Source: Rhizophagus irregularis (taxonomy: Eukaryota > Glomeromycota > Glomeromycetes > Glomerales > Glomeraceae). Taken from it: a stretch of 64,000 nt of DNA. The position numbers and the translations under genes are program-made. This document shows positions 20,115-52,745 of this stretch, piece by piece. The notes below the pieces were generated by a model. The model made no database searches. It worked only from the letters and a program-made list of their open reading frames with translations, and had not been told where the DNA came from. Position 1 is the first letter of the stretch; every line of letters starts with the position of its first letter. The stretch is taken from the NCBI RefSeq assembly GCF_026210795.1, contig NC_089440.1, forward strand, positions 1,364,001 to 1,428,000, in the 5' to 3' direction.

Positions 20115-21280
20115 ATGGTTTTCTATCAAATATCTTTAAACAAACTTTTACGCTTTATCGGAACAATCATTATATCGATATTAATTATTTACTCATTTTT
20201 TAATGATATTAATAATTTTAATAATCGAATTAGTAAAATTGAAGTAATTTCATTGCCTGGGAATCAAAAAAAGATTGATGTAGGTTATGGAGATGACTAT
20301 TGGATTTTAACTGAAAATAATGAGGTAATAATCAGTACATAATTTTTTTCTTGTATTTTTAAGTGATATAATTAATTAAATTCAGATTGTATCGACTTAT
20401 GCATGACTTAATTTTTTAAATAGCTTTATCATAAGAGTATGATGCTACAAAAATTTGTTTATAAGAGAAGTGATGTTTTAGATTTTGCCGTCGGATTAGA
20501 CGGAACCGTTGCTTACATTGATATAAATAATGAAGTATATGTTAGAAGTATGAATGCTGATTGGTGGTAAAATATTCCGTCAATAAATTAACTACCGGTT
20601 ATAACTTTAAAAGTTTATAAACTATACTATTTATACTGTAGGTATAAAATAGCTGACGGAAGTTATGCTCATCAAACAATTTCTATTTGTGATTACAAGA
20701 CAATATTTACAACAAATGATAATTTTGATTTCATCAAAGGTGTTTATGATTATAAAATAGATGACAAACTCGACATGTACAATTGGGAATATGGTAAATT
20801 ATTAAAAATAATATGTATATGTATGTATGTATATACTTAATACTGCATAGCATTAATTTTTATTTTATAAATTTTTAGTTGATTATTATTATACTTATTA
20901 TCAAGTTAGTTGTGCTTTTTGGGATCATTCAATATGGATTAGAGGTAGCGAAGAATATGCTTATCTTTACAAAGATAATTATACACAGTAAGTCATAAAT
21001 TTATTTATTATTATGTATTATATTTTTTTTTAATTTATTATTAATCCTCACAAAATTTCCTAATAGTATCCCTAGAACAGAAGTTGAATTAAAACAAGTT
21101 AAAGCGCTCTCTGAACAATATGCAATTGGAGTTGATTATTCTAACAATTTATGGGAACTTACTATGGGTACTTGGACTTGGATCAGAAATAATGTTAAAA
21201 GTGCGACCATTAATTATAATGGAAACATTTTTTATATTGATAATACTAACAGTTTTGTTTATAAATTAAGCAAAAATTAA
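20115..21280 (+). CDS. Membrane-anchored tectonin-like propeller protein, array copy P1
   Basis: Five exons, 20115-20324, 20424-20566, 20642-20793, 20879-20987 and 21067-21280, close in frame to 275 residues, with intron phases 0,2,1,2. Residues 11-29 form one hydrophobic helix after a short N-terminus bearing K10 and R13, consistent with an uncleaved type II signal anchor. The rest is built of tectonin-like blades of about 35-40 residues. Recognisable pieces are KKIDVGYGDDYWILTENNE, VLDFAVGLDGTVAYIDINNE, ISICDYKTIFTT, VSCAFWDHSIWIRG and KALSEQYAIGVDYSNNLWE, followed by TWTWIRNNVKSATINYNG. Tectonin repeats fold as beta-propellers and known examples bind glycans; a glycan ligand here is inference. 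Introns 2 and 4 fall near blade ends, and intron 2 splits a Trp codon TG|G. This is the first member of the array and more divergent than P2-P5. Confidence 0.82.
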
Positions 21281-21519
21281 TTTAGATTTTTAGTTTTTAT
21301 TATTTTTATATACTTGTATATATATTATATATTTATTTATCATACATTTTTTTTTGTTTTTAAAAAAATAAAAAATAAAGTTACAAATTGAAGATCATCG
21401 CAGAGCTTTCTAATTGAGATAAAAATCTTGTATTGAAGTAGTCATAGTCTGTTTTAAACGTCCTCCTGATCGTAAACAAACTACAATTGGTATTAGTGTT
21501 ACATATATCCTTTACTGAA

Positions 21520-21530
21520 TATATAAAAAG
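21520..21530 (+). promoter_or_regulatory. TATA-like box of copy P2
   Basis: TATATAAAAAG ends 58 bp before the P2 ATG, inside a block of about 130 bp (about 21400-21545) that is repeated before P3, P4 and P5. The block includes CTACAATTGGTATT and GAACGCAATTTTAT. Confidence 0.55.
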
Positions 21531-21587
21531 TATGAACGCAATTTTATTTAAAAAAAAAATATATATATATAAATTATTGAAATTGAA

Positions 21588-22737
21588 ATGACTTTTCACC
21601 TATTTTTAACGAAAAAGTTGCGTTTTATTTTTATTGTAGCGTTTATTATTATTTTTATTATTTTGAATATTTGCTCGTTTTATCAAGATGTTAATAGCTT
21701 TAATAAAGAGGTGAACTTGCCGTTTCCTAATAATACTGGAATAATGAAAATTGATGTTGGTCAAGGAGAGGACTTTTGGATTTTAACTGAAAATTATAAA
21801 GTAATGCACTTATGTCATATGAAATATTAAGTCTTAAATATAAACGTAATCATTTAAATTATATATTTATATATATATACTTTATTATGATATTAGCTTT
21901 ATCATTGGAATGCAATTAAGAGAAAATTTATTCGTAAAGCAAAGGATTATGAACCCATTTATGATTTTTCTGTAGGATCAGATGGAACAGTTATTATTTC
22001 TGATTATTATCATGATATAAATATTCGAAGTTATATCGATTCATGGTAAAATATTTTATTATAATTTTGTTTTGTTATAAATTATCATAACTAAAATGTT
22101 AAATGTTTGTTGATAGGAATATAATTTATGGACATTATGATAATAGAAATATTTCCATTTGTGATCTAAACAAGATTTTTACTACAAATAATTATATGTT
22201 ATTTGTAGGTGGTTATTATAAAGATATATATTTCTGGGACGAACGTAAGAAAATTATAAATTAACTATCATATGCGTTGTAAAGAAAGGTACTAATATTA
22301 GTTAAAATCGTTATAATTTAGTTGATCGTAACGACTATTATCAGATTTCCTGTGCTTTTCATGATAAATCATTATGGTTCATAGGTTATGGTCATTATAT
22401 TTATTTATATGTCAATAAGTATAGAAAGTAAGTTTAACAAAATTTTTCCTTTTTATTAAAAACTGAAAATGTAAGGGAAAAAAATTTAATATTTTAATAT
22501 TTTTATAACCTTACAGATTTTTATAGGATTATTCGATCAGAAGTTCCATTTAAACAAATTAAAGCACTCTCTGAACAACATGCGATCGGAATTGATTATG
22601 ATTATATTTTATGGGAATATATAAATGGTACTTGGACTTGGATCAGGAATAATGTTAGAACTGCATCTATTAATTATAATGGTGATATTTTTTACATTGA
22701 TAATGACAATTTTATTTATAAAATAAGTAAAAATTAG
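21588..22737 (+). CDS. Membrane-anchored tectonin-like propeller protein, array copy P2
   Basis: Exons 21588-21800, 21897-22045, 22117-22244, 22322-22427 and 22527-22737 give 268 residues with phases 0,2,1,2. The anchor spans about residues 11-32 (LRFIFIVAFIIIFIILNICS). The blades are recognisable from IMKIDVGQGEDFWILTENYK, YDFSVGSDGTVIISD, ISICDLNKIFTTNN, YYQISCAFHDKSLWFIG and KALSEQHAIGIDYDYILWEY. The last blade, TWTWIRNNVRTASINYNG, is the best-conserved part of the family. The upstream TATA-containing block is shared with P3-P5, so these copies duplicated together with their promoter. All splice sites are canonical and I see no break. Confidence 0.83.
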
Positions 22738-22950
22738 TTTGAAAATTTTTGGTTATTATTATTTTTATTACCGATATTATTTTGTCATTATTATGTTATT
22801 ACAAAAAACAAAAAATTTTTTATTATTGAAATGCTAGAATATCGAAAAGATCATCACACAGAGCAGGATAAATCTTGTATTGGAGTAGTCAAAAGACTAC
22901 CTCCTGATCCTAACAAACTACATTCGTGCTACATACATCCCTTTACTGAA

Positions 22951-22960
22951 CATATAAAAG
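22951..22960 (+). promoter_or_regulatory. TATA-like box of copy P3
   Basis: CATATAAAAG ends 56 bp before the P3 ATG, in the same position within the repeated upstream block as in P2 and P4. Confidence 0.55.
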
Positions 22961-23015
22961 GTTACGAACGCAATTTTTATTGTTTTTTACTTTAAGAAAA
23001 ATTTATTGAATTGAA

Positions 23016-24288: not shown

Positions 24289-24342
24289 TACGAACGCAAT
24301 TTTATCATTTTTTTACTTGAAAAAAATTTTTATTGAATTGAA

Positions 24343-24366
24343 ATGGCTCTTTATAAGTAAAATTAG
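24343..24366 (+). pseudogene. Deleted array copy: start and stop fused
   Basis: The family start ATGGCTCTTTATA is joined directly to the exon-5 tail and its 3' flank (AGTAAAATTAG, then TTTGAAAGCTTTTAGTTATT). Upstream and downstream flanks match those of the full copies. This looks like an entire array gene removed by a deletion of about 1 kb between short matches at the first and last codons. Confidence 0.75.
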
Positions 24367-24587
24367 TTTGAAAGCTTTTAGTTATTATTATTTTTATTAC
24401 CAATATTATTATGTTCAGTTATTTATTACAAAAAAAAAAAAATATTATTATTGCAATAATAGAATCACACAGAGCATTCTAATTAGGATAAAATCTTGTA
24501 TTGAAGTAGTCAAAACTTTGTTTTAAACGTCCTCCTGACCGTAAACAAACTACAATTGGTATTCGTGTTACATAATCCTTAACTGAA

Positions 24588-24597: not shown

Positions 24598-24653
24598 TAT
24601 GAACGCAATTTTATCATTTTTTTTACTTTAGAAAAAAATTTTATTGAATTGAA

Positions 24654-25940
24654 ATGGCTCTTTATCAATTATTTTTTATAAAAAATTTGCGGTTTATTTT
24701 TATCGGAGCATTTATTATTTTGAATATTTACTCGTTTTATCACGATGTTAATAGCTTTAATAAAGCGGAAACTTTTCCGTTTCCTGATAGTACTACTGGA
24801 ATAGCGAAAATTGATGTTGGTCAAGGAGATGACATGTGGATTTTAACTGAAGATTATGAAGTAATGCACTCAGGCCATACGAATACTGAGTCTTAATTTA
24901 AACGTAATATATATATATATTTAAATATACTCTTTGTATATTTTTTGATACTAGCTTTATCATTGGGATGCAATTGAAAGAAAATTTATTAACAAGGCAA
25001 GCCCAGTAAATAGTTTTTGTATAAATTTATACCAAATGGGCTCATCCATATATAATTGGCTCTAGATTGGCTTAAATTTGGATTATTTTTTGCATAAATT
25101 TGAGCTAATTTCGAGCCAATGAGCCCGTTTGGTATAAATTTATACAAAAACTATTTACTGGGAAGTAGTAATGAACCCATCCATGATTTTTCTGTGGGAC
25201 CAGATGGAACAGTTATTACTTCCGATAGTGTTGAAGACTTATATATTAGAAGTAACATTGATTCATGGTAAAATATTTTATTATAATTTTGTTTTATTAT
25301 AAATAATCATAACTAAAATATCAAATGTTTGTTCTTAAAAAAGGAGGAGATTGATGGAAGCTATTTTCATAGCAATATTTCCATTTGCGATTATAATAAG
25401 GTTTTTACTACAGATAATTCCAATTTATTTGTAGGTAGTTATTATAATAACGTATACTCCTTGGAAATACGTAAGAAAATTATAAATTAATTATATTCGT
25501 TATAAAAAAGAAAACAAATATACTAATATTAGTCAAATCATTATATTTTAGTTGACAGAGGCACCTATTATCAGATTTCCTGTGCTTTTCATGATAAATC
25601 ATTGTGGTTCATAGGTTCTGGACATTATATTTATTTATATATCAATAATTATAAAAAGTAAGTTTAGACAAAAATTTTCTTTTTATAAAAAAAAATGTAA
25701 GAAAATATATTTTACAAGATTTTCCTTAGAATTATTCGATCAGAAGTTCAATTTAAACAAATTAAAGCGCTCTCTGAACAACATGCGATTGGAATCGATT
25801 ATAATTATACCTTATGGGAATATATTAATGGTACTTGGACTTGGATCAGGAATAATGTTAGAACTGCATCTATTAATCATAATGGTGATATTTTTTACAT
25901 TGATAATAACAATTTTATTTATAAAATAAGTAAAAATTAG
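24654..25940 (+). pseudogene. Broken array copy P4, exon 2 interrupted by a MITE
   Basis: Exon equivalents are 24654-24860, 24955-25267 (with the insert 25002-25162), 25344-25470, 25552-25657 and 25730-25940. The inserted element brings an in-frame stop about 20 codons into the insert. Without the insert and one AAG target duplicate, exon 2 would be 149 nt, as in P2, so the element landed in an open exon. A second defect is independent: exon 3 is 127 nt where phase needs 128, a 1-nt loss at the acceptor junction (AAG|GAGGAG against AAG|GGAGTGG in P3). Exons 1, 4 and 5 remain very close to P2 and P5, which argues for recent inactivation. Skipping of exon 2 in a transcript cannot be excluded. 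Confidence 0.82.
25002..25162. mobile_element. MITE, 161 bp with near-perfect terminal inverted repeats of about 44 bp
   Basis: The ends are CCCAGTAAATAGTTTTTG and its inverse; the arms match over about 44 bp with a single mismatch (AATGGG against AACGGG). It is flanked by AAG on both sides (24999-25001 and 25163-25165), a 3-bp target duplication. There is no coding capacity. It sits inside exon 2 of P4. The superfamily is not assignable from this alone; 3-bp duplications fit Harbinger-like or CACTA-like groups. Confidence 0.92.
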
Positions 25941-26161: not shown

Positions 26162-27288
26162 ATGGCTCTTTATCAATTATTTTTTATAAAAAATTTACGG
26201 TTTATTTTTATTGGAGCATTTATTATTTTGAATATTTACTCGTTTTATCACGATGTTAATAGCTTTAATAAAGCGGAAACTTTTCCGTTTCCTGATACTA
26301 CTGGAATAGCGAAAATTGATGTTGGTCAAAGAGATGACTTATGGATTTTAACTGAAGATTATGAAGTAATGCACTTAAGCCATACGAATACTGAGTCTTA
26401 ATTTAAACGCAATATATATATTTATTTATATATACTCTTTGTATATTTTTTTGATTCTAGCTTTATCATTGGGATGAAATTAAAAGAAAATTTATTCACA
26501 GGACAGAGAGTTATGGAACCAGCTTCTATGATTTTTCTGTGGGACCAGATGGATCAGTTGTTTTTTCTTACTATGATATTTTTACGTATTAGAAGCTACT
26601 ACATTGATTCATGGTAAGATATTTTATTATAATTTGTTTTATTATAAATAATAATAAATAAAATATCAAATGTTTGTTTCTTAAAAAGAGAGTGGATTGA
26701 TCATGGAACTTATATTCATAAAAATATTTCCATTTGTGATTATAATAAGGTTTTTACTACAGATAATTCCAATTTATTTGTAGGTAGTTATTATAATAAC
26801 GTATATTCCCGGGAAATACGTAAGAAAATTATAAATTAATTATATTCGTTATAAAAAAGAAAACAAATATACTAATATTAGTCAAATCATTATATTTTAG
26901 TTGACAGAGGCCCTTATTATCAGGTTTCCTGTGCTTTTCATGATAAATCATTGTGGTTCATAGGTTATAATCATTATATTTATTTATATATCAATAATTA
27001 TAAAAAGTAAGTTTAAACAAAATTTTCTTTTTATAAAAAAATGTAAGAAAATATATTTACAAGATTTTCCTTAGAATTATTCGATCAGAAGTTCAATTTA
27101 AACAAATCAAAGCGCTCTCTGAACAACATGCGATTGGAATCGATTATGATTATACCTTATGGGAATATATTAATGGTACTTGGACTTGGATCAGGAATAA
27201 TGTTAGAACTGCATCTATTAATTATAATGGTGAAATTTTTTATATTCATAATAATAACAATTTTATTTATAAAATAAGTAAAAATTAG
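26162..27288 (+). pseudogene. Broken array copy P5
   Basis: Exon equivalents are 26162-26365, 26461-26613, 26689-26819, about 26902-27007 and about 27075-27288. Exon 2 is 153 nt, which breaks the phase series: a 1-nt shift near DIFTY puts a TAG in frame, while the downstream frame resumes the family RSYYIDSW. The Trp codon split across intron 2 would read TG|A, a stop, because the first base of exon 3 is A where P3 has G. The spacer between the TATA-like sequence and the ATG is also shortened from about 56 to 12 bp. Exons 1, 4 and 5 are almost identical to P4, so P4 and P5 are recent duplicates that decayed by separate routes. Confidence 0.8.
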
Positions 27289-27544: not shown

Positions 27545-28172
27545 CTTAATTATTCTTCGCATATAAAAGTTTTTATAGAAGCGATTATTATTTTGGATAT
27601 TATCATGATGCCAATTGCTTTAATAACTTTGTTCTAGCTTTTCCAACGAGAAATTCCAATTTACTTTTATTAAATTATAAAATCGAACACTGAACTGAAA
27701 TTAAAAAAAAATAGAATTGCGTTAAGAAATCGTTGAAAATTAATCGCTATTTATTTATTATTAATTATCTTTATTTTACAAGAAAAATTTATCTCAAAGT
27801 CAGAGATAATTCATCTTAAGAAGTTTAATCTAAAGTGTAACAAGTTTAAAAGTAACAAATGTTAATAGTATTGAAAATAATAAAGTTAACGAAAGTAATT
27901 TATCAAAAATAACGTATGTACACTTGATCACGTGTGTGAAAGTCACGTGAGAACGGACATGCTTTTGCGTAGAATGTAAAGTCTTCCGCTTCGCTTCGGA
28001 CAACTATAATTTGTTTATTAGAAGTGATATTGATTACGGTATTATTTTGTTTATTATATCTAAATTTAAAAACTTTCCTCAGAGTCCCTCGATCAAAAGT
28101 TTCATTTAAGCAAATTAAAACGCTTTCCGAACAACATGTGCTTTATGAGAATATATTTACAGTACTTGCATA
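27545..28172 (+). pseudogene. Decayed array copy P6
   Basis: Order-preserved fragments only. There is an exon-1-like anchor segment with a TATA-like CATATAAAAG upstream (27559-27660), an exon-2 end resembling LFIRSDIDS (about 28010-28040), and an exon-5 start resembling VPRSKVSFKQIKTLSEQHV (about 28085-28140). CACGTG occurs twice between them (about 27927-27948). Confidence 0.7.
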
Positions 28173-28573
28173 GTTAATTAGGAGGGTTGGATTCTTTTTA
28201 ACGATTACAAAATTATTTACTTGTTAAATCCCGTATTGTTTTCAAATTTGTTTAAAAACGTCCTTCTATCTGCCATAGCCAAACTACAATTATATTCGAT
28301 TGAGCATTATTTACTTAATTAAAAGTACGAAATTTTTTTTTAAAAAAAACATTATTGATTTGAAATGACTTTCAATCAATTACCTTTTATGAAAGTTTTG
28401 CGTTTTATTTTACTGGAGCGATTATTATTTTTATTTATTTACTTGTTTAGAATATTGAGTACTTAAATATAATAACGTAATTATGATTATATTATGTTTG
28501 ATAGCTTTATCGTTAGATACGATTCAAAAATAATTCATTCATATTAATGAATCCGTTGTTGATTTTTCTGTTG

Positions 28574-28847
28574 CCCTTCTAAACTAAAATCCGGTTTCTA
28601 AACTAGTTTCGAACTTCTAAACTAATTCTAAACTAGTTCAAACTTCTAAAACTAGTTTGAAATTAATTTAGAATTCTGAATTAATTTAAAAACTAATTCT
28701 AATTTTTAAAAACTAATACAAAACTAATTTAAAACTTTGAAACTTGCTTGAAATTATTAAGTTTAGAAAGTTTCGAAATTTGAAATAATTTTCTAAACCA
28801 ATTTCAATTTAGAATGATTCTAAACTCATTAGTTTAAAGGGCAGCTT
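28574..28847. mobile_element. MITE-like insert in P7 exon 2, about 270 bp
   Basis: The left arm CCCTTCTAAACTAA pairs with the right arm TTAGTTTAAAGGG. The interior is a run of variants of CTAAACTAGTTT that largely folds on itself. Flanks read TTCTGTTG (28566-28573) and TACTGTTG (28848-28855), an 8-bp near-duplication that would fit a hAT-type insertion. The exact right end is uncertain by several bases. Confidence 0.7.
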
Positions 28848-29102
28848 TACTGTTGGGTCAGATGAAACAGTTATTACTTCTAAATGATAATTATACATAT
28901 GTATGTTAGAAGTTACATTGATTCATGTTAAAATATTTTATTATAATTTTGTTTATTACAATCGAAACTTTTAAAAATATCAAATTTTGTTCGTTTCTTA
29001 AAAAGGATAGAATTTTCCATTTGTGATTACAATAAGAATACTATATATTATTAGTAGGTTATTATCGTAATAAATATTCTGGCAACAACGTAAATTAACT
29101 AT

Positions 29103-29407
29103 GGGTACATTCACACAAGATCAATTAGATTGTATTTGAGACTTTGAGTTCACCCTTGATCCCGGTTCCCGAACTATATTTATATTCATTTTGATTTGGA
29201 TTGGATTGTCGACAATGATAAATTTCCAATCTAGGGTATTACCACGATCGACTAAACCACCACCACCAACCACCTTTCACCACGCGTCAATTTTTTTTTT
29301 TAATCTTTAGGAATTAGGATATATTAAAAGTCTTGTAACACAAATCTAACTTATTTGTAAAACACAATCCCAACGGTTAATCCATATTGAATTTGTGAAT
29401 TGCACCC
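29103..29407. mobile_element. MITE in P7 intron 3, 305 bp, TAT target duplication
   Basis: The left end GGGTACATTCACACAAG and the reverse complement of the right end GGGTGCAATTCACAAATT form imperfect terminal inverted repeats of about 30 bp. TAT flanks both sides (29100-29102 and 29408-29410). It interrupts a sequence that in P2 reads AATTAACTATCATATG. GGG-type ends with a 3-bp duplication suggest a Harbinger-like MITE. No ORF. Confidence 0.82.
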
Positions 29408-29723
29408 TATAAATAAACATACCAATATTAGTTAAATCATTATATTCGATCACCGTGCTCGATAATTATTATAAAAAGCAAGTTTAACAAAATTTTCTTT
29501 TTATTAAAAAGAAATTGTAAGAAAAAGTATTATATTTAATATTTAATAAAGTTTTCCTTAGAATTCTATGATCAGAAGTTAAATTAAACAAATTAATTAA
29601 AACGAACACATGTGCTCCTTATGGGAATATCTTTAGAACTTAGGTCAGAAGTAATGTTAAAAATGCATCTACAGTATTATTAATTACACAGAATTTAATT
29701 TTTCTTTGTTCAAAACGCCAAAT

Positions 29724-30552: not shown

Positions 30553-31635
30553 ATGGTTTCTAAAAAATTATTAAAATTATTTTCACTTAGTTTAGTTATA
30601 GTTATTATTGTTTTCTCCATTTACTATGATGTAAATAACTTTAGCGCGTATATTAGTAAGGTTAGAAAGTCGGAAGAACCGCCATATCCTAAAGTTCCCG
30701 GAATAAAAAAAATCGATGTAGGAGAAGGCGACGATACTTGGATTTTAACTGACAAAAATGAAGTAACGTAGTAGTTTTTTTTTTCATTTTAAATAATATT
30801 AAGATTTTCATACGAATCTCGAGTCTTATATATATTCAATTCAAACTCAGCTTTATCACTGGAACCGTTTTAAAAAGACGTTCCTGTATGAGAGGAACCA
30901 TGTTTTCGACTTCGCAGTTGGATCAGATGGCAGCATAGTTTATATTGATGTTTACAATAGTGTACACATCAGAGATTCAATTAGTTCGTGGTAAAATATT
31001 TATTTCAATTTTATACATATCATTTTATTATTATTCATTTACGATTAAATACTAAATAATTGTTTCATAAATTTTTTTTTAAAAAGGCATATTATTTATG
31101 ATTCGAAATATTACAAAATTTCGCGGATTTCGATTTGTGATTATAATACAATTTTTCTTGTGGACACCTTTCATAACTTAATTAAAGGTGTCTATGATAG
31201 TGGAACTGATCATTATAGCTGGGACTTAACACCCGGCCATTTTTATCAAGCTTCCTGTGCTTTTCATGACTATTCGTTGTGGGCAATATGCGAAGATTAT
31301 GTTTATCTTTATATAAATAAATTTAAAAAGTAAGTTTTAAAAAATTTTTTTTTCTCTTTTTTTAAAAAAAAAAGAAAATCATTTTCAACGATTAATCTTT
31401 ATATTATCTCTCCAGAATCCTTCGATCAGAAGTTGTATTTATATACATTAAAGCACTCTCAAAACAACATGCAATTGGAATTGATAGTGATAATACCCTA
31501 TGGGAATATATTAATGGGACTTGGACTTGGGTTAGAAGTAACGTTAAAAGCGCCTCGATAAATTATAGCAATGATATTTATTATGTTGATAATAACAATT
31601 TGATCTATAAAAAACCAAAAGATTTAAAAAGTTGA
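30553..31635 (+). CDS. Membrane-anchored tectonin-like propeller protein, array copy P8 (intron 3 lost)
   Basis: Four exons, 30553-30762, 30851-30990, 31087-31329 and 31416-31635, give 270 residues. The third exon equals exons 3+4 of the relatives fused without an intron: the frame runs straight from TDHYSWDLTPGH into FYQASCAFHDYSLW. This is a clean intron loss. The anchor spans about residues 8-25 after MVSKKLLK, a more basic N-terminus than in the others. Blades include GIKKIDVGEGDDTWILTDKN, VFDFAVGSDGSIVYIDVYN, ISICDYNTIFLVD, KALSKQHAIGIDSDNTLWEY and GTWTWVRSNVKSASINY. It ends KDLKS, lacking the usual KISKN tail. It is the last plus-strand copy and faces the AT-rich core. Confidence 0.85.
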
Positions 31636-31905: not shown

Positions 31906-32953
31906 ACGAAACAGGGTGCTTATTATCAGAAATGTTTTTAGAAATTAGCTTTTTTATACACTATACCATTATTTGCCACAAATATATCAAATTTGATAAT
32001 TGATAATATAAATATTTTTCAATTATATTATACTTTTTCATTTTTATACTAATTGAAATTTATATAAACATTAAAAAGTAAAGAAATAAACTCAAAATTA
32101 TGCAAAAAAAAATAAATTAAAAATTAATATTATTGTTAAACTTAACTATAATTACTATAATTATCATAATTATCTAATTATTTTACCAGTTTATATAATT
32201 ATAATAGTTAAATATAGAAAATTGATACATATTACCAGAATTCTGAACAAATACTGTTACAACTCACATTTGAGTTTACTTAGAGTTTATATTAAAATTT
32301 TTCAAACATTGTGTATTATAGAAGTATTTCAAACTTTCATTATTCTATATTTAACACAACTAATAATTCAATTTTAATAAAATTTATATTATTGAATTCA
32401 TCTCAATGAGAAAATTCTAATAATAGTAAAATCACATTTATAGTTTTAATATTAATAGAGTTATGCTATAAAATGTATTTTTACTTTTGTATTTAAAGTT
32501 TATTTGCAAATTATATTAGTATTATTTAGAGTATTACAATATTTATATAATTATTAACTTTGTACTTTTTATATTTATTTAGAGGTATCTTTGAAAATCA
32601 CAAAAGAAGAATTATCATATAAGTGGTTGATTGATATATTTATTAAAACAATTTAACAATTTGTTAATATTTTTAATAAGTAAATGCCTTTTACTAAATA
32701 TTTCTTTTTAGATTTTTTCATTTCATTTTTTTTATTTTAGGTAAATAAAAAAACTAAAAATCTTTTTCTCAAATATGAACCAAATGCATTTGAATAAGTT
32801 ATTTAAATCCTTAAATTTTTATCAAATTACAAATATTATTATAATGAATTTAATAAATAAAAATTTTGATAAATTTATATAAGATGAATAAGTCAAAAAT
32901 TAATAAGTAAAAGATTAAAAAAATTTATATTATATAATTAAATAAGAGTATAT

Positions 32954-34432
32954 CATATGTGCCGATTTTTGGAATTAGTCTAAATTAAGATTTTTATAAA
33001 AATTTAATATTTTAGTAAGATTAACATTACACAAATCTAAATTAAATGTGTTACATATTTACGTAACTCAGATTTAATAAAAAATAAAAAAAATTTTTTT
33101 AATCAATATTCAAAAATAACGGTAATAACCACTTCTTTTTCCCCATCACTGCCCATCACTTTTCCATTATTTTTCTATTCACTTTTATTAAATATGACAA
33201 AAAAGTTTATAAGCAAATATAGCAGTTATTTTTAAGTGGTAAGTAAAAGAAAAAACTTAATATTTTATATACATAGATAAGATATATTTTTTCATAATTT
33301 TTAGCTTTAATTTATTGTTTTTTCTTTGTAAAAAATACATGCAAATAAAAAATAATTATGATGTAAAATAGTTGTAAAATGAATAATAAGATATTCTTTT
33401 TTTTCAAAATAACTAATTATATATTTGTTTTTTATATTTTAAAATTATTTTATTAGATTTATTCTATTAAAATCCTTAAATGGCAAATAAAATCTTTTAA
33501 ATAAAGTAAAAGAATTTGGGATTCTCTTATGAAAGCATTTTTTGGTAAGAAATAAAATTTTCAGATCGGACTTTATGCAGGTGACAAAATCGTGCATTAT
33601 TATTCCTGGAGATATGCTAACGTCATCATTTTACATTCATTTGAAAGCTGAGAATTTGCTCTATCGTAAGAATCAAAGATCAGGAAAATTGGATCACTGG
33701 ATGAGGCGTAATTAACGATCAAAGTCAAATCAAATTTAAAAATTAAAAATAAATATATTAGACGTAATTATTCACAATCCAGTGATTCAATTCATTCGAT
33801 TTTAGGCTTATTAGATAGACCTCAATTTTCTCTTTCAAATGAATATAATTTCATTCGTGTAGCTTGCATCTACAGGTATTTAATAAATTTTTTTATATCA
33901 GATTTTATCAAACTTATAAAATTTTATATTAATAATATAATTGATGATTTCTAAACATCTACATATATTAAACGAATTATTTTAAATTTATTTTAAAGAT
34001 AAAAGTTGGCATCACCTTAGGGAGCAAAGATCATTCAAATTGAATCACTACATGTGAAGTAATTAATGATCAAATTCAGATAAAATTCAATAAATATACT
34101 GAACGTGATTACTGAACAACTAGTGATTCAATTCACTTGATTTTAGATTCATTAGATAGATCTCGATTTTCTCTTTCAAATGAATGTAAATTTATTTGTA
34201 TAGCTTATTTCTACGAAGAATTATCAATGATTTTGTCATGAGAGTTATATTTGATCTTTTAAATTTTAATGATATCTTATATTAAAAAAAAATTAAAAAT
34301 TATATAATTAATTAGTTTTTTTTGCATTATCTAGTATAAATTTATTATTCTTATATAAATGATAATTTATATTTGCTTTAATAAAATTATTTTTGTGTAA
34401 AAAAATTAGATTCCAAGGATCGGCCCATATGT
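32954..34432. mobile_element. Candidate non-autonomous DNA element of about 1.48 kb with terminal inverted repeats
   Basis: The left end CATATGTGCCGATTTTTGG and the reverse complement of the right end CATATGGGCCGATCCTTGG match over about 27 bp with a few mismatches, continuing GAATTAGTCTAA / GAATCTAAT. CATATG at both ends may be part of the arms or a target duplication; because it is palindromic I cannot tell. The interior has no transposase frame and contains the hairpin unit at 33636-33846. Confidence 0.55.
33636..33850. repeat. Long imperfect hairpin of about 210 bp, partially repeated at 34015-34205
   Basis: Arms run TTCATTTGAAAG...GGATCACTGGAT and ATCCAGTGATTC...CTTTCAAATGAA, each about 75 bp with small gaps. 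A second degenerate unit at 34015-34205 keeps GAATCACTAC / CTAGTGATTCAATTCA and TAGATAGATCTCGATTTTCT. A third relative (ATCCAGTGATCC, GATAGGTCTCG) lies at 38777-38825. Confidence 0.7.
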
Positions 34433-37400
34433 GAATTATTTAAATAATAATATCTTTATTTTTTTAATACTTATGTAATACAATTTAAAGTTTAAAAAAC
34501 TTTTTATTTCATATAATATAAATGGAATAACAAATGTATTAATTATAAATATTATAAATAAAACTTTTATAATGTTTTAGATTATTATAACGAAATTTAA
34601 ACTGTATTTAAATTAAAAAAAATAATTTAAGATCTTAATATTAATAATTAAACTATTGCAAAGCTTATTATAATAAATATTTTTTCAAATTATACCATTT
34701 TTTTTAGTTTTTAATATTTTAATAGCTTTCAAATAATAAACAATTATGATATTTTAAAACTATCAATTTCAATAATACTTTTAATATTATTAAGAGAGCA
34801 CTTACTGAAAATCCCATTTTTATTATAATTACTACAACTATTGACTCTAATTTTTCTATTAATATGAGAATTCATCATTTGAAAAATTTATAAAAAGAAG
34901 CATTAGAAAATGAGATAAAGAATTTAGACTTATTTTTACATAAGCTTAAAATTCAATTTGAATTTAAAAATAATGTCATAAATATAAAAGATATATTTGA
35001 TGAGATGATTGAAAAGAAAATAAAAGTTAAAAAGTAAGATAAGATTAAAGTTTTTGAATAAAACAATTAGATAAAAATTATATAAATATATATTTATAAT
35101 TAGTATATAAAAATAATATTAGTTAAATTTTTAATTGCATCTAGTTAACTATTTTTTATTTATAAAATTTTAATAAAACTATTTATAATTTCACTTGTAT
35201 TAGGCTTTATTTTTTAAATTTATATGTGATATATTTGCTTTTACCAATAAATATAAAAAATTTAAATAATATATAGCTTTTTATTTTCAACTTAATAAAA
35301 TCTCAAAAAATAAAATTAAAAATATTTAAATATTTTTCTGTTATAATTTTATAATCTAACAGACATAATGAGCTAATTGTTAAAAAACTATTGTATTATA
35401 ATATTTTAAAAAGCTGTTTAAGTACTACATAATTTAATAATTTTATAAAAAAATGAAAAAAACTATATTTAACAATTTATACAAGTTTTTGCTTAACTGT
35501 TAAGTCTAAATATTGAGATAAGGCAATTATATAAAATTAAACATCTGAAATATATTAATAAAATTCTTGCTAAAGGAATAAGAACTGTATAATATAAGAT
35601 TTATATATATATTTTGCATTTTTTTAAAAAATTTACATTTATTTTAATATTTATAACTAAGTTAACTAAGTTCAAGTTTGAGAAATTAAATTTAAAATAA
35701 TTAAAGAAAGAGTTATAAAATTAAAAGAAAAGCAGTTATAAAATATAGTAACTTTTAACTAAATTTATCATTACTAATTGAAATTAAATACAGTATTAAA
35801 AAGCTATAAAATTTAAATAAATTGTCAGAAAATATAATCAGATTTTTTTGTAATACAAATAATATTAATAAAATAATATTTTTTTTTCCAATAATTATAA
35901 TTTTAAATATAAGATTTGAAAATATGTATAGTAATTTTAAAATCATTTTTATTAATTTGTAAAAATTAAATAGCTATTATAAGAAAATATAGGTGAATTT
36001 TATATTAGTGATAATAGGATATAGAAGTAATTTATAGAATAGTCAAAGTTTTAATAGATTAGTTATGCACATAGCAAAAATTTCTGTAATTTCATATAAC
36101 TAATACACTTATGAATTACACTACTTTGCAAAAAAAAAAAAAAAATTGTTAAGAGTTAAAATACTATATAAAATTGTTAATGAAAATTTGAATATTACTT
36201 TCTTTTGAACATTTCTATATTAAAAAATAAATCAATATATTTTTTTTGCTTAAAACTCTTTAGTTATATACGAATATACTTAAAGCTATATATATACAAT
36301 TCTCATCAGAGTTTTTGCAGTTAATATTCTTAAAGAAATAAATGTTTTTTTTGAAAACACTGTTTTTTTTGAAATAAATCTATATTTATTTATTGCATAG
36401 TTCTTTAGTAATAAAAAAGCTACAAAGTAATGTATATATATGGATAAGTTTTTAATAAAAATCTATAGAATTTAACCAATACAAAGACATATTTTTATTA
36501 ATAAAAAAACTATAAACAGTTAGAAAAATTATCATTACTAAATTATTAAATCATTATTATATTATAAAATTATATAAATTAATACTTTATAAAGTAATAT
36601 TATGAAATTACTAAAATTAATATATTATAATATAATAAAAATTCAAGTTGCTGGTTATTCTTGTAACTAATTAATTTTAAGAATAATTAGTAACTAAAGT
36701 ACTAAACCTGATTTAAAAGATTAAAATTAAAGAATTTTTTTCAAAATTGAGATTTTTATTGCATTATATCTTTTGATATAATTAGATTAAATATAATAAC
36801 TTTTAAATTTTAACTAAAAAATTCTTTTACTTTGATTTTTTAAATCAGATTTCATATAATTTTTTAAAGAAAATTTATAAAATTAATATATATATTTTTA
36901 AAAAAATAATGAATTAATAAAATAAAAAAAACAAAAAATATTTTTAAAAGAATTTTATAATTTATTATTATAGTAATATATTACTAGTAATGTTATATAC
37001 TAAATTATAGTAAATTACCAGATTTTTAAATTTACTTAATAATATAGGCATTTTGTAATAAAAAAGGATAAATCTACTGAAAAATTCAAATTTTCTTTTA
37101 TATGCTAAAAATATTCTAAATGCTATAATTTGTTCAGATTTTATATTAACTCATTTTTAATTTTTTTTAGTAGTTTCATTCTTTTTTACTGCCAAATGCC
37201 TATATATAATAAAATTAAAGATTTTTAAATTGCATAAAAGTTTATAAACTTTTAATAAAGTCAGTCAAAAATTCTTTTATTTAAAAACTAATTTATTAAT
37301 TTTTTTTTTTCTTTGTAAAGGCGTGATCATGTTTATTAATAATAATGTTAAAGTAATACAATATATTTACAAAAGTAAAATAAAATAAAGTATTCTAAAT

Positions 37401-38673
37401 TAATTTAAACATTATCAATATACTGCCTTTTCTGAAGGAAAAGACTGACCTATCACTTTGAGATTAAAGATGACTTGTCATAATAGATCTAAAAATTTGA
37501 CCAATAATCTTTCTTGTCGAACATTAAGCTATTTCATAATTCCTAACATGAACTTACTATTTTATCTAATTTATTGATCACTAATTTAGTTTTGTTGGTC
37601 GACTTTTTCATCTTAGCATTAATCCTTTTCTAATATTTTAAATCAACTAATTTAACATTCCTAAAAAACTAATTATTAATAGTTATTAAAATATGATTAA
37701 AAATATCCAATTTTAAGAATGCAGAAAATAATTTATTTACTATAAAGTAATAGATAAGATAATTTTATATGTAGTAAAATGAGAAAAACATATAGAAGAT
37801 CATTACTTATACTTTGCAATAAGAGAATTTTTTTTTTTGTTTTAATATATAAAAACTAAAAATAATTAGCTATTAAATAAAAAAATTGGCTAAATTTATT
37901 GAAAATTTATAAACTTTTATATAATATAAAAATCTTCAATTTTACCATATATTACTAAGTAAATTTTATAAATTTAATAATTTATTGTATATTATCAATT
38001 ATCAAATTTTATAAATTATATAAAAATTATATAGTAATATAGTAGATAGAATTTTGTATACCAGCCATACTATAAATAAAAAAAAAAAATTTTGTATACC
38101 AAAAAATTCAAATTTTTGGAATAAATAGGAAAAATGAATTATAATAAAAATATAGTTATATAATACTAATAATTAGTATCTTACATATGCAACTTGAAAT
38201 GACTTGTATAGGACAAATTTTATTATATAAAAAATTGATTTAAAACTCAATTTAATTCAAACTCGTAAGGAACACTACTAATAATAATATATTGCTATAA
38301 TAATAAACTATAAATTTTTTTTTAAAAAAGTAATTATATAATAAATTATTTTTTTTTTAAAAAAAAAATAAATAAAATTTTTTAAATGAATTTTTATTTA
38401 AATGATTAATATTTTTTTATTTAAAATTTTAATTTATATTAAAAGTTTATATTTAATTTTAATTAAAAAAACAAACTTATTTTTTTTATATTTTTTTTGT
38501 TTTATTTACAAAGTTTTAATTAAATTTTTAAAAATAATAAAATAAATAAATATTTTACATTATATTTTTTTAATATAGATAAAACATAGAATTAAATTTA
38601 ATGAAAAAAAAAAGTTATATTTAAAATCAACTTTGATGCTTTAAGTAAATTTGTATCTCTTAAACTGTAAGCA

Positions 38674-38960
38674 ATTGTGGGTAGTGTTCCGTATGAATCA
38701 AATTTCTTCTCTGAAATTCGATTCGATTTGGACTTGATTCAGACTCGATTTGACCTCCAAAAATTATTATCTCAGGATCCAGTGATCCAATTTTGATGAT
38801 CTTTTTTTAATCGATAGGTCTCGTTGCCCTAATCAAAATAAAAAAAAATCATCGAAATCAGACTGCTAGATTAAAAGATATTCGCAAAATACGTTTTTAT
38901 TATTCAGGAGCAATCAGAGTCATACCGTGTCATGAATCGATTTGTGCGGAACACTAATTG
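38674..38960. mobile_element. Inverted-repeat element with TAGTGTTCCG / CGGAACACTA ends
   Basis: The left end CAATTGTGGGTAGTGTTCCG and the right end CGGAACACTAATTG are inverted; GTATGAATC and GATTTGTG follow inwards. Another GGAACACTAC at 38269-38278 is inverted relative to 38681-38690 and may be a second nested end. The interior carries ATCCAGTGATCC, as in the hairpin units at 33.6-34.2 kb. Confidence 0.5.
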
Positions 38961-40735
38961 CGAGCAAATTTGCCTGCAATTTTATTAAAATTTCAGCTTT
39001 CATATAATTTTATGAAAAATAAAGCAATTTTAATAAAATTTTTTCCAAAATAGTTTAAATTATATATTGTGTAGCAATTATTATCATTTATTAATTATAT
39101 ATTAGAAAATCGAAAATTACCTATTGGTCAAAAGTTGTATTTTAAAATAATCACAAAATTTTAAAAAACTTTGCATTTAACTTCAACGATTTCATTGATA
39201 ATTAATTGTAGCTATATAAAAGCTTAATAGAATATGTAGAATTTGGTATGAGAAATAGCTTTTATTAATATGATTTTTAATGTTTAAAAGTAGGATTTTG
39301 ACTTTATATAGAACCTTAGTGAAAATTTTATTATACATTTTAATTATAATATTATACTCATAAAAATTAATTTTTTTTCCTCTATTTTGTTTATTATAAT
39401 GCAAAATTTTTATAATGAAAATAAAAAGTTATAATAAATATTCAAATAGAGAAAAAAATATAATAAGAAAAGTTAAGATTTTACTATATAAAAATTCTGA
39501 TACTATTTTTGTAGGTTAATTTCTCATCCAATTTTAATGATCAATTGCATATCTAACTCACATAATTTATGGCCAGAATGTAGATCAATTTGGCTGCAAA
39601 ATTATGTGATGATCTGGCCAAAATTAAAGAATTTTTTATAGTGTCATTTATCCTAATTTAGAAATTGCAGGCACAATACAGTTTAAGGGATAATAAACAA
39701 AAATATACATACTGCATGTTTCTCTTAAAATTAAATTTTTTTATATAAATTTTCAATAAAATCATATAATATATATATGAACATTTCATGTAATTTAAAA
39801 AATTTTCTTTAATATATATATATTTTTATAAAATTATTATATTTAAATACTTTATAGAAATATTTTAAAATTTTTCTGATGTAAATATATTTTTATTAAA
39901 AAAAAGAAATTTATATTTAAATAAAACACAATGCAATATAATAAGAAATTAAATAAAAAATTAAAAAAAAATTCAATAAATTATAAAAAATCTGGAAACC
40001 ATTAGATTCTTTTTATTAAGATAAACTTATTAATATAATTTTATTAAATTTGAATTGTATATATTTTGAAAATACCTTTAAAATAAACAATTTTTTATGA
40101 TTAATAAGTAAATTCCAATTGTATTCTATATATAAATTGTTTGGAATTTTGTTATAAATTATTAAGTTAAATTTTATAAAATACATGTTAATATATATGT
40201 TCTACTATTTCAGATATTATAATTCTTTATTTAGGAATTTGAATTAACTTATCTTTAAGCTGAAATCCAGTTCCAGAAAGGTGTTTTCTAAAAAAACAAA
40301 GTAAAAGGAATGTTCTAAGTTGTTTAAACCAAATTCTGAAGGGGAAGATCAAAGGAGAAGATCAAAGACATTCCAGACTGCTCTATTTAAAGATGTGTTT
40401 CCATACCCTATCTTATGATAATACTTGCCCAGTTACTTGCTCAGATCTTGATTTTAAAAAGTTTTTTATACTGCCCTTAAAAATTCCATAATAATTTTAA
40501 AAAATTCATGGAAATTTAAGTAGGGTGAAAATAATTCTATGTATATTAATTTTTGTTTCAATTGTATTTTGATTTTTTGATTTTTTGAATTTTTTGAGAA
40601 AAAATACCTGTTCTTTTTATAAGACCTTCTAATAAATACCAGATATATCATAATGGAAGATATTTTTTAATCAGTTCTATACATTCAATATATTTATTTA
40701 TTTTATTTTTACATATGATATAAATTACAAAGCTT

Positions 40736-46392: not shown

Positions 46393-47471
46393 TCAATAAT
46401 AAATGATAAAAATTTCTCCACCAGCATAATTAATGGATGCACTTTTAACGTTCTTATTTTTCCATTGCCAATTACCATCTTTATATTCCCATAAATCATT
46501 AGTATTATCTATTCCAATAGCGTGTTGGTCAGAAAGAGCTTTGATATACTTAAATAGAGCTTCCGATCTAACAATACTAATAAATTAAAAATAAATAAAA
46601 ATTAATTATTAAAGAAAAACGAAGCAAATTATTTGATTTATAAAATAACATACTGTTTATTATTAGATATATATCTGTAAATGTAATCACCATCACCTCT
46701 GATCCACAATGAATAATCATGAGGAGCGCAAGAAATTTGATAATAATCATTTTTACAATCAACTAAAATATGTAAATGTTAATTTATAAATTCTTTCCAG
46801 ATATCATTTTTCTTTAAGTTTCATAATACATACCGCATATCCAATCATATCTATCAGTTTTAATATCATAAATACCTTTAATGAAATGGTTTTCAGAATC
46901 AGTAGTAAAGATCATATTGTAATCACAAATGGAAATTTTTTGATGTTTAAATTGTCCATCACTAATTCTACTTTCCCTTTAATAAAAATGTCAACCCAAT
47001 TAATTAATATTATTAAAACAAACTTGATATTGTAAAAAATGTTTTACCATTTATTAGCATGAATAGTTCTGATATATACTTCATTATCTTTTTTAATAAG
47101 AACAACTGTTCCATCTGATCCAACAGCAAAATCTAAAACATTGGAATCCTTATATATTAAATGTTTTATGATTGGGCTCCAATGATAAAGCTAATATAAT
47201 ACATAATATTAAAAAGAGAAATAGATTCACTCGAAAAGAAAATCTTAATTGAACTTAGATTAGAAAGATACACTACTTCATCGTTATCTGTTAAAAACCA
47301 AATATCTTCTCCTCGACCAATATCGATTTTCTTTGGATTCTCAGGGTATGGAATTCCTCTAACCTGTTGATCACTAAAATTATTAAAAAACAAATAAGTG
47401 ATGGTAAAAAGAATAATCGCTCCAATTTTAAAATTCAATAATTTAATAAATGATAAATGACAAAAGATCAT
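46393..47471 (-). CDS. Membrane-anchored tectonin-like propeller protein, array copy M5
   Basis: Exons 47471-47277, 47190-47048, 46976-46834, 46762-46654 and 46576-46393 give 257 residues, phases 0,2,1,2. The start at 47471 (MIFCHLSFIKLLNFKIG) aligns with M1; an in-frame ATG nine bases upstream is possible. The anchor is about residues 14-29. The linker GIPYPENPKKIDIGRGEDIWF is intermediate between the M1-M3 type and the plus-strand type. The stop comes early: a short indel in the last blade turns the expected YIDN into IFIIYY followed by TGA, removing about 12 residues. The blade core (KNKNVKSASINYAGGEIF) is kept, so the product may still fold. It is counted as intact with a shortened C-terminus. 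Confidence 0.78.
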
Positions 47472-47480
47472 TTTGATCAT

Positions 47481-48329: not shown

Positions 48330-48587
48330 TCAGAAATTCGAATTTTTAATATTATAGATAATATAATTATTATTTTTATCAAGGAAAAAAAGATCTCCAT
48401 TATAATTAATAGTTGCACATTTAACATTATTTCTAATCAAAACCCAAGTACCTTCAATATATTTCCATAATCTGAAATAATAATCAATTCCAATTGCATA
48501 ATTTTCAGAGAGAACTTTAATATAATCGAATGGAATTTCTGCTAAAGGAGTACTAATAACAAATAAAATAAATAATAATAATAAAAA

Positions 48588-48618
<31 letters not shown>

Positions 48619-49538
48619 AAAAATAATAATAAATATAAAATATATTTCAAAATATATTAAAGTAAACAATAAAATAACTTACTGCTTGTTTTTATTAATA
48701 TATTTATAAATCAAATTATAACGATCTTTAATCCATAAAGAATGATCATGATAAGCACAATAAATGTGGTAATAATATCCTATGTCATCAACTTTTAATA
48801 AAGAATTTAAAAGAAAAGGTTAATATGTATTAATATTGATAAATTATAAATATTATTATTTGAAATGGTTAATATATACCAGATTCCCAATTATATGTAT
48901 TAAATTCATCATGATAAACACCTTTATTGAAATCAGCATAATCATTTGTTGTAAAAATTGTTCTATGATCACATAAGGAAATAGTCCGATGAGTGTGATG
49001 ATCATCATCTATTTTATCCCTAGTAAAAAATGAATATTAACATTATCATTAATAAATAGAAAATCATTAATTTATTTTTATTTTACCATGAATAAACATA
49101 TAAATTTCTAATATATATTTCATTGTTTTGATTAATATAAACGGCTGTTCCATCTGATCCAATAGAAAAATCGGTGACATTCCTTCGCATAAATGTCATT
49201 TGTTTCAAAATTGTACTCCAATGATAAAGCTATAATATATATATATTTTATTTTTTTCTATCACAAAAATTCAAATTATCATATAACTATAATATAATGA
49301 ATTACTTTTAATAATACATTACTTTATTTTCATCTGTTAAAATCCAAAAGTCTTCTCCTCGACTAACGTCAATTCTCTTTATCACTGCATTATTAGGAAA
49401 TGGTGGTAATTTTATTTGGCCAGTTTTTATGTTTGGGTTATTTATGTCATTGAAAATCATATTGATAATTAAAATTATACATATTACAATTAAAATCAAA
49501 CGAATTTGTTTAGTAATTGACAATTGATAAAAAGTCAT
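48330..49538 (-). CDS. Membrane-anchored tectonin-like propeller protein, array copy M6
   Basis: Exons 49538-49323, 49229-49087, 49019-48880, 48791-48683 and 48552-48330 close at 276 residues, phases 0,2,1,2. The anchor is about residues 13-29 (RLILIVICIILIINMIFN). PPFPNNAVIKRIDVSRGEDFWILTDEN replaces the VGQGED motif with VSRGED. Exon 3 carries TRTISLCDHRTIFTTNDYAD. The last blade reads ENYAIGIDYYFRLWKYIEGTW, then a longer tail (YIIYNIKNSNF). Intron 4 (48553-48682) is the longest in the array and contains an (AAT)n/(AAAAT)n tract; read in the exon-5 frame it would give a false poly-Leu stretch, so the splice acceptor at 48553 matters for annotation. Confidence 0.8.
48570..48636. repeat. (AAT)n microsatellite within M6 intron 4
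   Basis: AAT triplets with periodic AAAAT units; about 65 bp, entirely intronic. Confidence 0.85.
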
Positions 49539-49847
49539 TTTATTTTTTTTTTTTCGAACGGTAAAGAAACCATTTAAAAATTATTTTAGAATGTTAGTGT
49601 ACTTAATAAATTGGCGTTTTGTAACCACAAAAAAAAATCCTGTTTTTATCTCGTCAATCTCAATTTCTGCAGTAACCTGCAGGCTGCAGCATCTCGCAAC
49701 TTTGGTTTTAGTATATAAATTAGTTATATAAAATTGATTTCTTACATAATAATTAGAAACAAAAATAATTATTTAGAAAAAGAGAATTTTATTCAAAAAT
49801 TTTATAACTCAATAAATATAATAAAATTACACAATTATTATTAAAAC
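49539..49847. other. Intergenic, no gene seen
   Basis: About 310 bp between M6 and M7. It contains CTGCAG-rich TTCTGCAGTAACCTGCAGG (about 49664-49682). An inexact relative of this segment (GGCGTTTTGTAACCAC, 49613) recurs upstream of M7 (51110-51180) and upstream of M8 (52125-52150), so these copies share an upstream block. Confidence 0.5.
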
Positions 49848-51046: not shown

Positions 51047-51389
51047 TTTTTTCGTTTTTTGCTTAGAGAGAAGATAATCGAAGTTACACGCATAAACATA
51101 TTTAAATAAATTGGGAGTTTGTAGCTATATACTGTAAAAATCCTGTTTTTCTTGATAATCTAATTTCTAAATGGCCCGCAGGAAATGAAATCTAGATAAA
51201 ATTCAGCTTTTTAATAAAAGTTTTCCCATCAATTATACATACTAACCTAATATATCTGTCGGTATATACAGTACTTGATCGTATCATATGACATAATAAA
51301 TAATGTGTAACAAATAATTTCACTCCAAAACCATTGTTAATAAATCCCCAGTAAGTAATAATAAAAAATAATTTCGTATAAATCAAATT
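51047..51389. other. Spacer between M7 and remnant M8
   Basis: About 340 bp. It includes the upstream block shared with M6 and M8 (AAATTGGGAGTTTGTAGC, about 51108-51125) and otherwise nothing recognisable. Confidence 0.5.
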
Positions 51390-52075
51390 ATCATCATCGA
51401 CTAATTAACGGACGTACTTTAACATTACTTTTTATCCAATTCCAAGTGTCACTACATGATTCCATAAGTTATTATTAAAAATCAATTCCATGATCGGAGA
51501 GTGATTTAAATTACTTAAATTAAATATCTGATCGAGGAAATCTACAAGGTACGATAATATAAAGTTAAAAATAAATAAATGTATGAATAAAGCAGCAACT
51601 GTACGGTATATAAATAATGTAGTTTTGTAACTTACCGAAAATATAAAATATATCTCGATGGACCTCTGAACCATACCGAAAAATCATGAAAAGCACAATA
51701 AAATTGATAATAAATACTTCTTAATTCTAAATATATAGATGTTAAAATCATAATTAACAATTGATAATTTAATATATACCATAACTCCATTTATACGAAC
51801 TAGTTGCAATAAAAGCAAAACCATAGTATTAAGTTTTTGAAAAATAAAATCCTTTAAACCTATTAAAAAATATACATGTAAATATATAAAGATAATTAAT
51901 ACACTACAGCGCCACTATCATCCAAAATCCCAATGTCTTCTCTCCGACCAACATCAATTTTTTTGATACTTACATTTTTAGGAAATGTAACTGTTACATT
52001 CACATTATTAATTTGCGTATTGATATAATTGCTCCGGCAAAACTCAAACTCAAATGTTTAAGGTAAATGAAAAGT
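51390..52075 (-). pseudogene. Decayed array copy M8
   Basis: Minus-strand fragments in family order: an exon-1 remnant (about 52020-51905, resembling VTFPKNVSIKKIDVGRREDIGILDDS, with part of the anchor lost), a short exon-3 end, an exon-4-like piece (about 51725-51640, FYCAFHDFSVWFRG-like) and an exon-5-like piece (about 51545-51395, SDHGIDF... LWNHVVTLGIG-like). Exon 2 and most of exon 3 are missing. Confidence 0.7.
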
Positions 52076-52219
52076 CTATTTTTTTGAGAGAATTTGAGCT
52101 ACACATTAGTATACTTAAAAAGTAAATTGGGCGTTTTGTGATCATATTTCTGAGTTTGTACGCATTTCAATAAGAAATTCATTTTGTAAAATTTTGTAAA
52201 CCAAATCACCAAGAGTAAA

Positions 52220-52745
52220 AAAATTGTAATTAATGGCTGCGCTTTTCAGTTGCTTAAATGATATGTCTGATCGGTACATAAAGCGGATTCAACGGAGATA
52301 AAAGGTAAATATATAAAGTTAAAAAATCAACAATTTGTTCATAAATAATTTAAAGTAATTTAATTTATTGTCTGTGTTTATAGAAATATAACTAGATGGA
52401 CGTGTATTTTTTAAAAAAATTATAATATTAAGTACTACTTTTTATACGTATCAGTATAATCTTAAACGCCTTTAATTAAATCTAAAATAATGGTCGTAAT
52501 AAAATCGTTTGTTATCTCAAATCGAGAAAGAAAATAACATAGTTTTCTTTCCCTTTTATAAGAAATGGTTGTCTGATCCGGACAATAATCAATTAAATGA
52601 AATAATTGATCGAGAAATTTTAAGACATTGAAATTATATTATAAATTTTAAAATATTAATTCATGTATAAATTTATCTAAAAATGTACAGTATCTCAATG
52701 GACATGTAAAGCACAAAACATTTGATAATAAATATTTAAATGTAT
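52220..52745 (-). pseudogene. Decayed array copy M9 (and possibly a second fragment)
   Basis: Minus-strand pieces resemble exon 3 (about 52540-52430), exon 4 (about 52410-52365) and exon 5 (about 52290-52225, RSDISFKQLKSAAIN-like). A further exon-4-like piece at about 52735-52685 is out of order, suggesting that two remnants are juxtaposed. No open frame. Confidence 0.6.

What the first reader, a model, noticed from the sequence alone, without database searches (positions are those of the whole stretch)
20115..52745. Large two-sided array of membrane-anchored tectonin-like propeller genes
Eleven intact genes, two broken ones and at least four remnants encode the same architecture: basic N-terminus, one anchor helix, then about 240 residues of tectonin-like blades. 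Known tectonins are mostly soluble lectins; a tandemly amplified single-pass anchored form is not something I know as described. High copy turnover next to a soluble relative is the pattern expected of recognition or adhesion receptors. The glycan-binding role is inference.
Basis: partly seen in the sequence, partly recalled or inferred. Interest (0 to 1): 0.88.

Follow-up and report, generated by a model that had tools for sequence, protein, structure and literature searches.

The report
Array of membrane-anchored tectonin genes
A root-symbiotic fungus carries one cluster of eleven fast-changing genes that join a sugar-binding type of protein fold to a membrane anchor; they could be sensors or adhesion proteins on its cell surface, but what they bind is unknown.

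Summary
Confirmed. The window (contig C12 of an assembly that matches Rhizophagus irregularis DAOM197198) holds 11 intact genes, 2 damaged ones and 4 remnants of one family, in two arms facing each other. Each intact gene encodes a short N-terminus, one hydrophobic anchor segment and about 220 residues that align end to end with tectonins. Descent is shown by four introns shared in position and phase with the anchorless tectonin gene next door, and by profile comparison; only 2 of 11 pass Pfam's tectonin cut-off. Six searches of the genome found the family only here; the only other clear tectonins are a pair on C13 with a membrane segment at the other end. Close copies keep their frame (16 of 16 exon indels are multiples of three, against 2 of 26 in introns). 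Exons 3-4 (blades 3-4) diverge faster than nearby introns in two of three comparisons. Most sugar-contact residues known from Laccaria tectonin 2 are lost or changed, so sugar binding is unproven. Best reading: surface recognition or adhesion proteins made by anchoring and amplifying a tectonin.

The parts
20115..21280 (+). gene A, intact, 5 exons, 275 aa
21588..22737 (+). gene B, intact, 5 exons, 268 aa
23016..24141 (+). gene C, intact, 5 exons, 267 aa
24654..25940 (+). gene D, damaged: repeat insert 25002-25162 in exon 2
26162..27288 (+). gene E, damaged in exon 2 at the conserved splice sites; an open path through other splice sites exists
28085..28184 (+). remnant (exon 5)
   Evidence: E 1.5e-9
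28365..29688 (+). remnant (pieces of exons 1, 2, 3, 5)
   Evidence: E 1.5e-8 to 0.0099
30553..31635 (+). gene F, intact, 4 exons (intron 3 absent), 270 aa
40736..41845 (-). gene H, intact, 5 exons, 269 aa
42080..43185 (-). gene I, intact, 5 exons, 266 aa
43390..44526 (-). gene J, intact, 5 exons, 273 aa
44869..45960 (-). gene K, intact, 5 exons, 266 aa; best Pfam tectonin score of the array (39.7 bits)
46393..47480 (-). gene L, intact frame, 5 exons, 260 aa, shortened end
48330..49538 (-). gene M, intact, 5 exons, 276 aa
49848..51046 (-). gene N, intact, 5 exons, 275 aa
51380..52074 (-). remnant (exons 1, 4, 5)
   Evidence: E 4.1e-18 to 2.3e-9
52443..52527 (-). remnant (exon 3)
   Evidence: E 1.2e-5
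52965..53951 (+). gene S, anchorless tectonin, 5 exons with intron phases 0,2,1,2, 226 aa

Best explanation
A tectonin gene gained an N-terminal anchor within its first exon and the anchored form was amplified by local duplication at this one locus. The product is most likely a type II single-pass membrane protein: short N-terminus in the cytosol, six-bladed propeller outside the cell or in the secretory lumen, probably with an added disulfide between blades 3 and 4. It most likely works as a surface recognition or adhesion protein: blades 1, 2, 5 and 6 are the conserved frame, and blades 3-4, which in a six-bladed ring lie opposite the tethered end, are the fast-changing face. Shown: the gene models as open frames, shared introns, tectonin profile match, one locus within the search's reach, selection for open frames, fast change of exons 3-4. 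Inferred: fold geometry, topology, disulfide, surface display, recognition. The ligand is unknown; if it is a sugar, the specificity probably differs from that of Lb-Tec2.
For: Four introns shared with S in phase and in position: introns 1 and 2 at the same column, 3 and 4 within two columns. Array and anchorless profiles align over 204 columns, E 2.1e-12. Array and tectonins S/T1/T2 separate at 100/100 support and neighbours cluster. Frame-keeping indels 16 of 16; neutral simulation leaves no stop in 0.05-0.8% of runs. Codon-model omega 0.31 outside exons 3-4 and 1.00 inside, 2dlnL 50, split chosen. Exons 3-4 differ more than introns 2-4 in I-H (16.7 v 6.7%, p 0.0011) and J-I (29.1 v 13.4%, p 3.6e-5). 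N-side charge positive in 10 of 11. Cys in 11 of 11 and 9 of 11 at two columns where S, T1 and T2 have none.
Against: The array profile against the PDB gives only E 1.4 for its best hit, Lb-Tec2. Most Lb-Tec2 sugar contacts are not kept. In B-C exons 3-4 are not significantly faster than introns (p 0.14). Synonymous differences are raised in exon 4 as well, so mosaic exchange or misalignment may explain part of it. By a simple residue rule 7 of 11 have at least one possible signal-peptidase site. No expression, topology or ligand data.
Confidence: 0.5

Rival explanations
1. The hydrophobic segment is a cleaved signal peptide, so the products are secreted soluble lectins, a diversified defence set against nematodes, amoebae or bacteria, as proposed for Lb-Tec2.
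For: 7 of 11 proteins have at least one residue triplet allowed by a simple (-3,-1) rule. Lb-Tec2 is described as a nematotoxic defence lectin (PMC6272156 passages).
Against: 4 of 11 (N, M, K, I) have no such site. Lb-Tec2 contact residues are mostly changed. The rule is crude; no signal-peptide predictor was on hand.
Confidence: 0.2
2. Resident protein of the fungus's own secretory pathway (for example a luminal lectin handling its own glycoproteins), not a surface receptor.
For: A type II anchor with a luminal domain is the usual layout of such proteins (general knowledge); the same topology evidence applies.
Against: Eleven intact copies, four remnants and fast exons 3-4 are unusual for a housekeeping role.
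Confidence: 0.12
3. The array is mostly under weak constraint: redundant copies drifting and exchanging pieces, with no special role for blades 3-4.
For: Two damaged genes and four remnants. Omega in exons 3-4 is not different from 1. Synonymous change is raised in exon 4 too. B-C shows no significant excess over introns.
Against: Frame-keeping indels 16 of 16 and absence of stops; overall omega below 1 for B-C, J-H and J-I, though not for I-H.
Confidence: 0.12
4. The propeller faces the cytosol and the segment only tethers it to an inner membrane, as an intracellular sensor.
For: The models of S, T1 and T2 start without a signal peptide.
Against: Charge is higher before than after the segment in 10 of 11; conserved added cysteines.
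Confidence: 0.06

Closest known systems
Laccaria bicolor tectonin 2 (Lb-Tec2, PDB 5FSB/5FSC)
   Same: Tectonin family; gene S in this window matches it at E 1.7e-42 and it is the best PDB hit of the array profile, though at E 1.4.
   Different: No anchor; binds O-methylated sugars (PMC6359319 and PMC5238581 passages); its contact residues are mostly changed in the array.
Tectonins (PF19193) of Glomeromycotina
   Same: Tectonin genes were reported in Glomeromycotina (PMC10481521 passages); S, T1 and T2 here are such genes.
   Different: The passages seen mention neither an anchor nor an array; 9 of 11 array proteins score under the Pfam cut-off.
T1/T2, tectonins on C13 of the same genome
   Same: Same four introns plus one extra; also have a membrane segment.
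   Different: Segment at the C-terminus after a Ser/Thr-rich linker; 18-22% identity to the array.
Physarum tectonins I and II
   Same: Linked to bacterial aggregation and phagocytosis by amoebae in PMC4208408 (passages, citing Huh 1998); surface location is recalled.
   Different: Not known to me as an anchored tandem array (recalled; not tested).

Membership tests
Tectonin (PF19193) | Sequence profile above Pfam's gathering score (30 bits) | tested here: inconclusive
   2 of 11 pass (K 39.7, I 33.0 bits); 9 of 11 match at E 0.01 or better; B and M do not. Gene S passes at 194.3 bits
Tectonin (PF19193) | Co-linear homology over the whole domain | tested here: met
   hhalign 97.7%, E 2.1e-12, 204 columns against S/T1/T2
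Tectonin (PF19193) | Common gene structure with accepted members | tested here: met
   Four introns in matching phase and within 0-2 columns of those of S, T1 and T2 in 10 of 11; three of four in F
Tectonin (PF19193) | Six-bladed beta-propeller fold | not testable with these tools
O-methyl-sugar-binding tectonin (Lb-Tec2 type) | Contact residues Asn216, Tyr222, Trp3 and their equivalents in the other blades | tested here: not met
   Asn 5 of 65, Asp 32 of 65; Trp aligned in 11 of 11 at 2 of 6 sites; an aromatic residue at the Tyr position is common at five of six sites; numbering taken
Type II signal-anchor protein | N-terminal hydrophobic segment with positive side inside and no cleavage | tested here: inconclusive
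   Segment 11 of 11; positive N side 10 of 11; possible cleavage triplet in 7 of 11 by a crude rule
RCC1 repeat | RCC1 profile match | tested here: not met
   RCC1_2 in 1 of 11 at E 0.1

The most novel reading that the evidence does not exclude
The array is a variable self/non-self or partner recognition system of an arbuscular mycorrhizal fungus, inherited together with the large cluster of mating-type-like HMG-box genes that ends about 4 kb away.
Probability: 0.06. Interest if true: 0.92.

Novelty: new variant of a known kind. Interest (0 to 1): 0.6.

Why it matters
Arbuscular mycorrhizal fungi meet roots, bacteria, nematodes and other hyphae, and few candidate surface recognition proteins are known for them (general knowledge). 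A family made by anchoring a tectonin, amplified at one locus and changing fastest in two blades, gives a concrete set of proteins to test for ligand and location. Since 9 of 11 fall under the Pfam cut-off, such families are easy to miss in annotation.

Tried and rejected
Kelch, NHL and RCC1 readings: single members only, E 0.1 or worse. A search of the genome with PF06462 found nothing, nor did its controls, so it shows nothing. NCBIfam gave six families, each in 1 or 2 of 11 members, best E 0.00027, unrelated by name. Scans of prokaryote genome contigs and viral contigs with the array alignment: 63 and 15 pattern matches, none confirmed. Positive selection from raw NG86 values (I-H 1.30) was dropped after the codon-frequency model gave 0.78. 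Literature searches: tectonin+Rhizophagus 0 papers; tectonin+Glomeromycotina 1; tectonin+arbuscular mycorrhizal 3; tectonin+transmembrane+fung 15; tectonin+propeller+lectin+methylated 11; tectonin+Physarum+lectin 5; Rhizophagus+propeller 24, 15 listed; Rhizophagus irregularis+lectin+expanded+receptor+tandem 7. In these listings and in the passages read I saw no anchored tectonin array; the library lacks most subscription papers and preprints, so this is weak evidence of absence. For every paper cited I saw passages or the listing, not the whole text.

Full report
SOURCE. The window is C12:1364001-1428000 of a genome of 146,748,485 bases in 32 contigs. C13 is 5,085,394 bases long, exactly the scaffold N50 given for R. 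irregularis DAOM197198, GCA_026210795.1, with 32 scaffolds and 146,773,001 bases (PMC10234402, passages). I take the source to be that assembly or one almost the same.

GENES. Ten of 11 have intron phases 0,2,1,2; F has 0,2,2. D holds a repeat insert in exon 2. E is out of frame in exon 2 at the conserved sites, but the aligner found an open path through other splice sites. Exon profiles from 10 of the 11 intact genes find all 13 genes in all five exons and four remnants, and give two weak hits on gene S; the reversed window gave none. A possible further scar near 24339-24372 was seen only by eye.

DESCENT. Gene S is an ordinary tectonin (PF19193 E 2.4e-57; Lb-Tec2 E 1.7e-42). Its four introns have phases 0,2,1,2 and lie at the same column (introns 1, 2) or within two columns (introns 3, 4) of those of the array. 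The array and S/T1/T2 profiles align over 204 columns at E 2.1e-12, although identity is only 18-25%. Directly against the PDB the array profile reaches only E 1.4, with Lb-Tec2 on top. In a tree of 14 proteins the array and S/T1/T2 are separated with 100/100 support; B-C and H-I-J group together, but the - strand arm is not one group.

HOW MANY. Genome searches with S, A, J, T1 and two exon baits gave array matches only in this window. Other clear tectonins are T1 and T2 on C13, about 17 kb apart and 95% identical, with a Ser/Thr-rich linker, a C-terminal membrane segment and a basic tail. One search also lists six weak hits elsewhere (E 0.037-0.54), over the C-terminal part of T1. The tool scores only its best candidates and searches exon by exon, so very divergent copies could be missed.

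PROTEIN. A hydrophobic segment lies near the N-terminus in 11 of 11; the residues before it are net positive in 10 of 11, and 7 of 11 have at least one possible cleavage triplet by a crude rule, so cleavage is not excluded. Two alignment columns have Cys in 11 of 11 and 9 of 11, where S, T1 and T2 have none; L, J, I and H have Cys at two further columns. This fits, but does not prove, an oxidising compartment. Against the Lb-Tec2 contacts (PMC6359319 figure legend; numbering placed), Asn216 equivalents are Asn in 5 of 65 positions and Asp in 32 of 65; the Trp aligns in 11 of 11 at sites 2 and 5 only (at site 3 a nearly invariant Trp lies a few columns away); site 5 has invariant Asp, Trp and Trp. 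Altered specificity, or no sugar binding, is more likely than the Lb-Tec2 specificity.

SELECTION. Between close copies (B-C, I-H, J-I), 16 of 16 exon indels are multiples of three against 2 of 26 in introns (p 9.2e-10). Neutral simulation of the observed substitutions, all placed on one copy, leaves no stop in 0.05-0.8% of runs. NG86 gives a median omega of 0.71 over 55 pairs. The codon-frequency model gives 0.43 (B-C), 0.78 (I-H), 0.49 (J-H) and 0.47 (J-I), all but I-H different from 1. Pooled by region, omega is 0.31 (anchor part), 0.30 (exon 2) and 0.36 (exon 5), but 0.70 (short blade-1 part), 0.68 (exon 4) and 1.27 (exon 3), the last three not different from 1. With shared time over B-C and I-H, omega is 1.00 in exons 3-4 and 0.31 elsewhere, 2dlnL 50; the split was chosen. 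Exons 3-4 differ more than introns 2-4 in I-H and J-I, not significantly in B-C (p 0.14), where exon 3 alone does (p 0.025, chosen after seeing the data). I-H and J-I share gene I. Synonymous change is also raised in exon 4, so mosaic exchange or misalignment may contribute. Selection for change is a fair reading, not a proven one.

LOCUS. Between the arms lie a ~1.5-kb repeat (32949-34453, against two fetched copies), for which 40 of 271 candidates were scored, own copy included, all at 99% or more, and an AT-rich stretch with dispersed repeat pieces. For the insert in D, 40 of 105 candidates were scored, own copy included, all at 96% or more. Left of the array are four HMG-box genes in the window, the end of a run of 12 HMG-box matches at C12:1323777-1379418, of 99 in the genome at E 0.001. 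A study of this species reports a five-gene HMG-box tandem holding a gene induced when two isolates meet (PMC7490403, passages); I could not tell whether it is this cluster. Nothing but closeness links the HMG-box genes to the array.

VERDICT. An anchored, amplified, fast-changing tectonin family is a new variant of a known kind. Surface recognition or adhesion is the best guess, at about even odds.

Noticed in passing
window 1940-2791 (-), 5186-6004 (-), 10741-11397 (-), 15107-15868 (+); C12:1323777-1379418: Four HMG-box genes beside the array are the end of a run of 12 HMG-box matches in 56 kb, of 99 matches in the genome; possibly related to the HMG-box tandem of PMC7490403.
   Followed up: partly
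L024 1984-3230 (-), L025 1555-2797 (-): Two nearly identical tectonin genes on C13 with a C-terminal membrane segment after a Ser/Thr-rich linker: the same fold apparently anchored at the other end.
   Followed up: partly
window 32949-34453: About 1.5-kb dispersed repeat with many nearly identical copies, between the two arms; one copy also lies about 3.6 kb from T2 on C13.
   Followed up: partly
window 25002-25162: About 160-base repeat with imperfect inverted symmetry, inserted in exon 2 of gene D; 40 scored copies at 96% or more.
   Followed up: partly
window 34450-40200: Very AT-rich stretch (15-18% GC) with pieces of dispersed repeats.
   Followed up: partly
window 57372-58364 (+): 330-residue ORF with several membrane segments by eye and no Pfam match better than E 0.23; could be a receptor-like protein.
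   Followed up: no
window 63315-63869 (-): 184-residue ORF that looks by eye like a PD-(D/E)XK nuclease; only a weak Hjc match, E 0.088.
   Followed up: no
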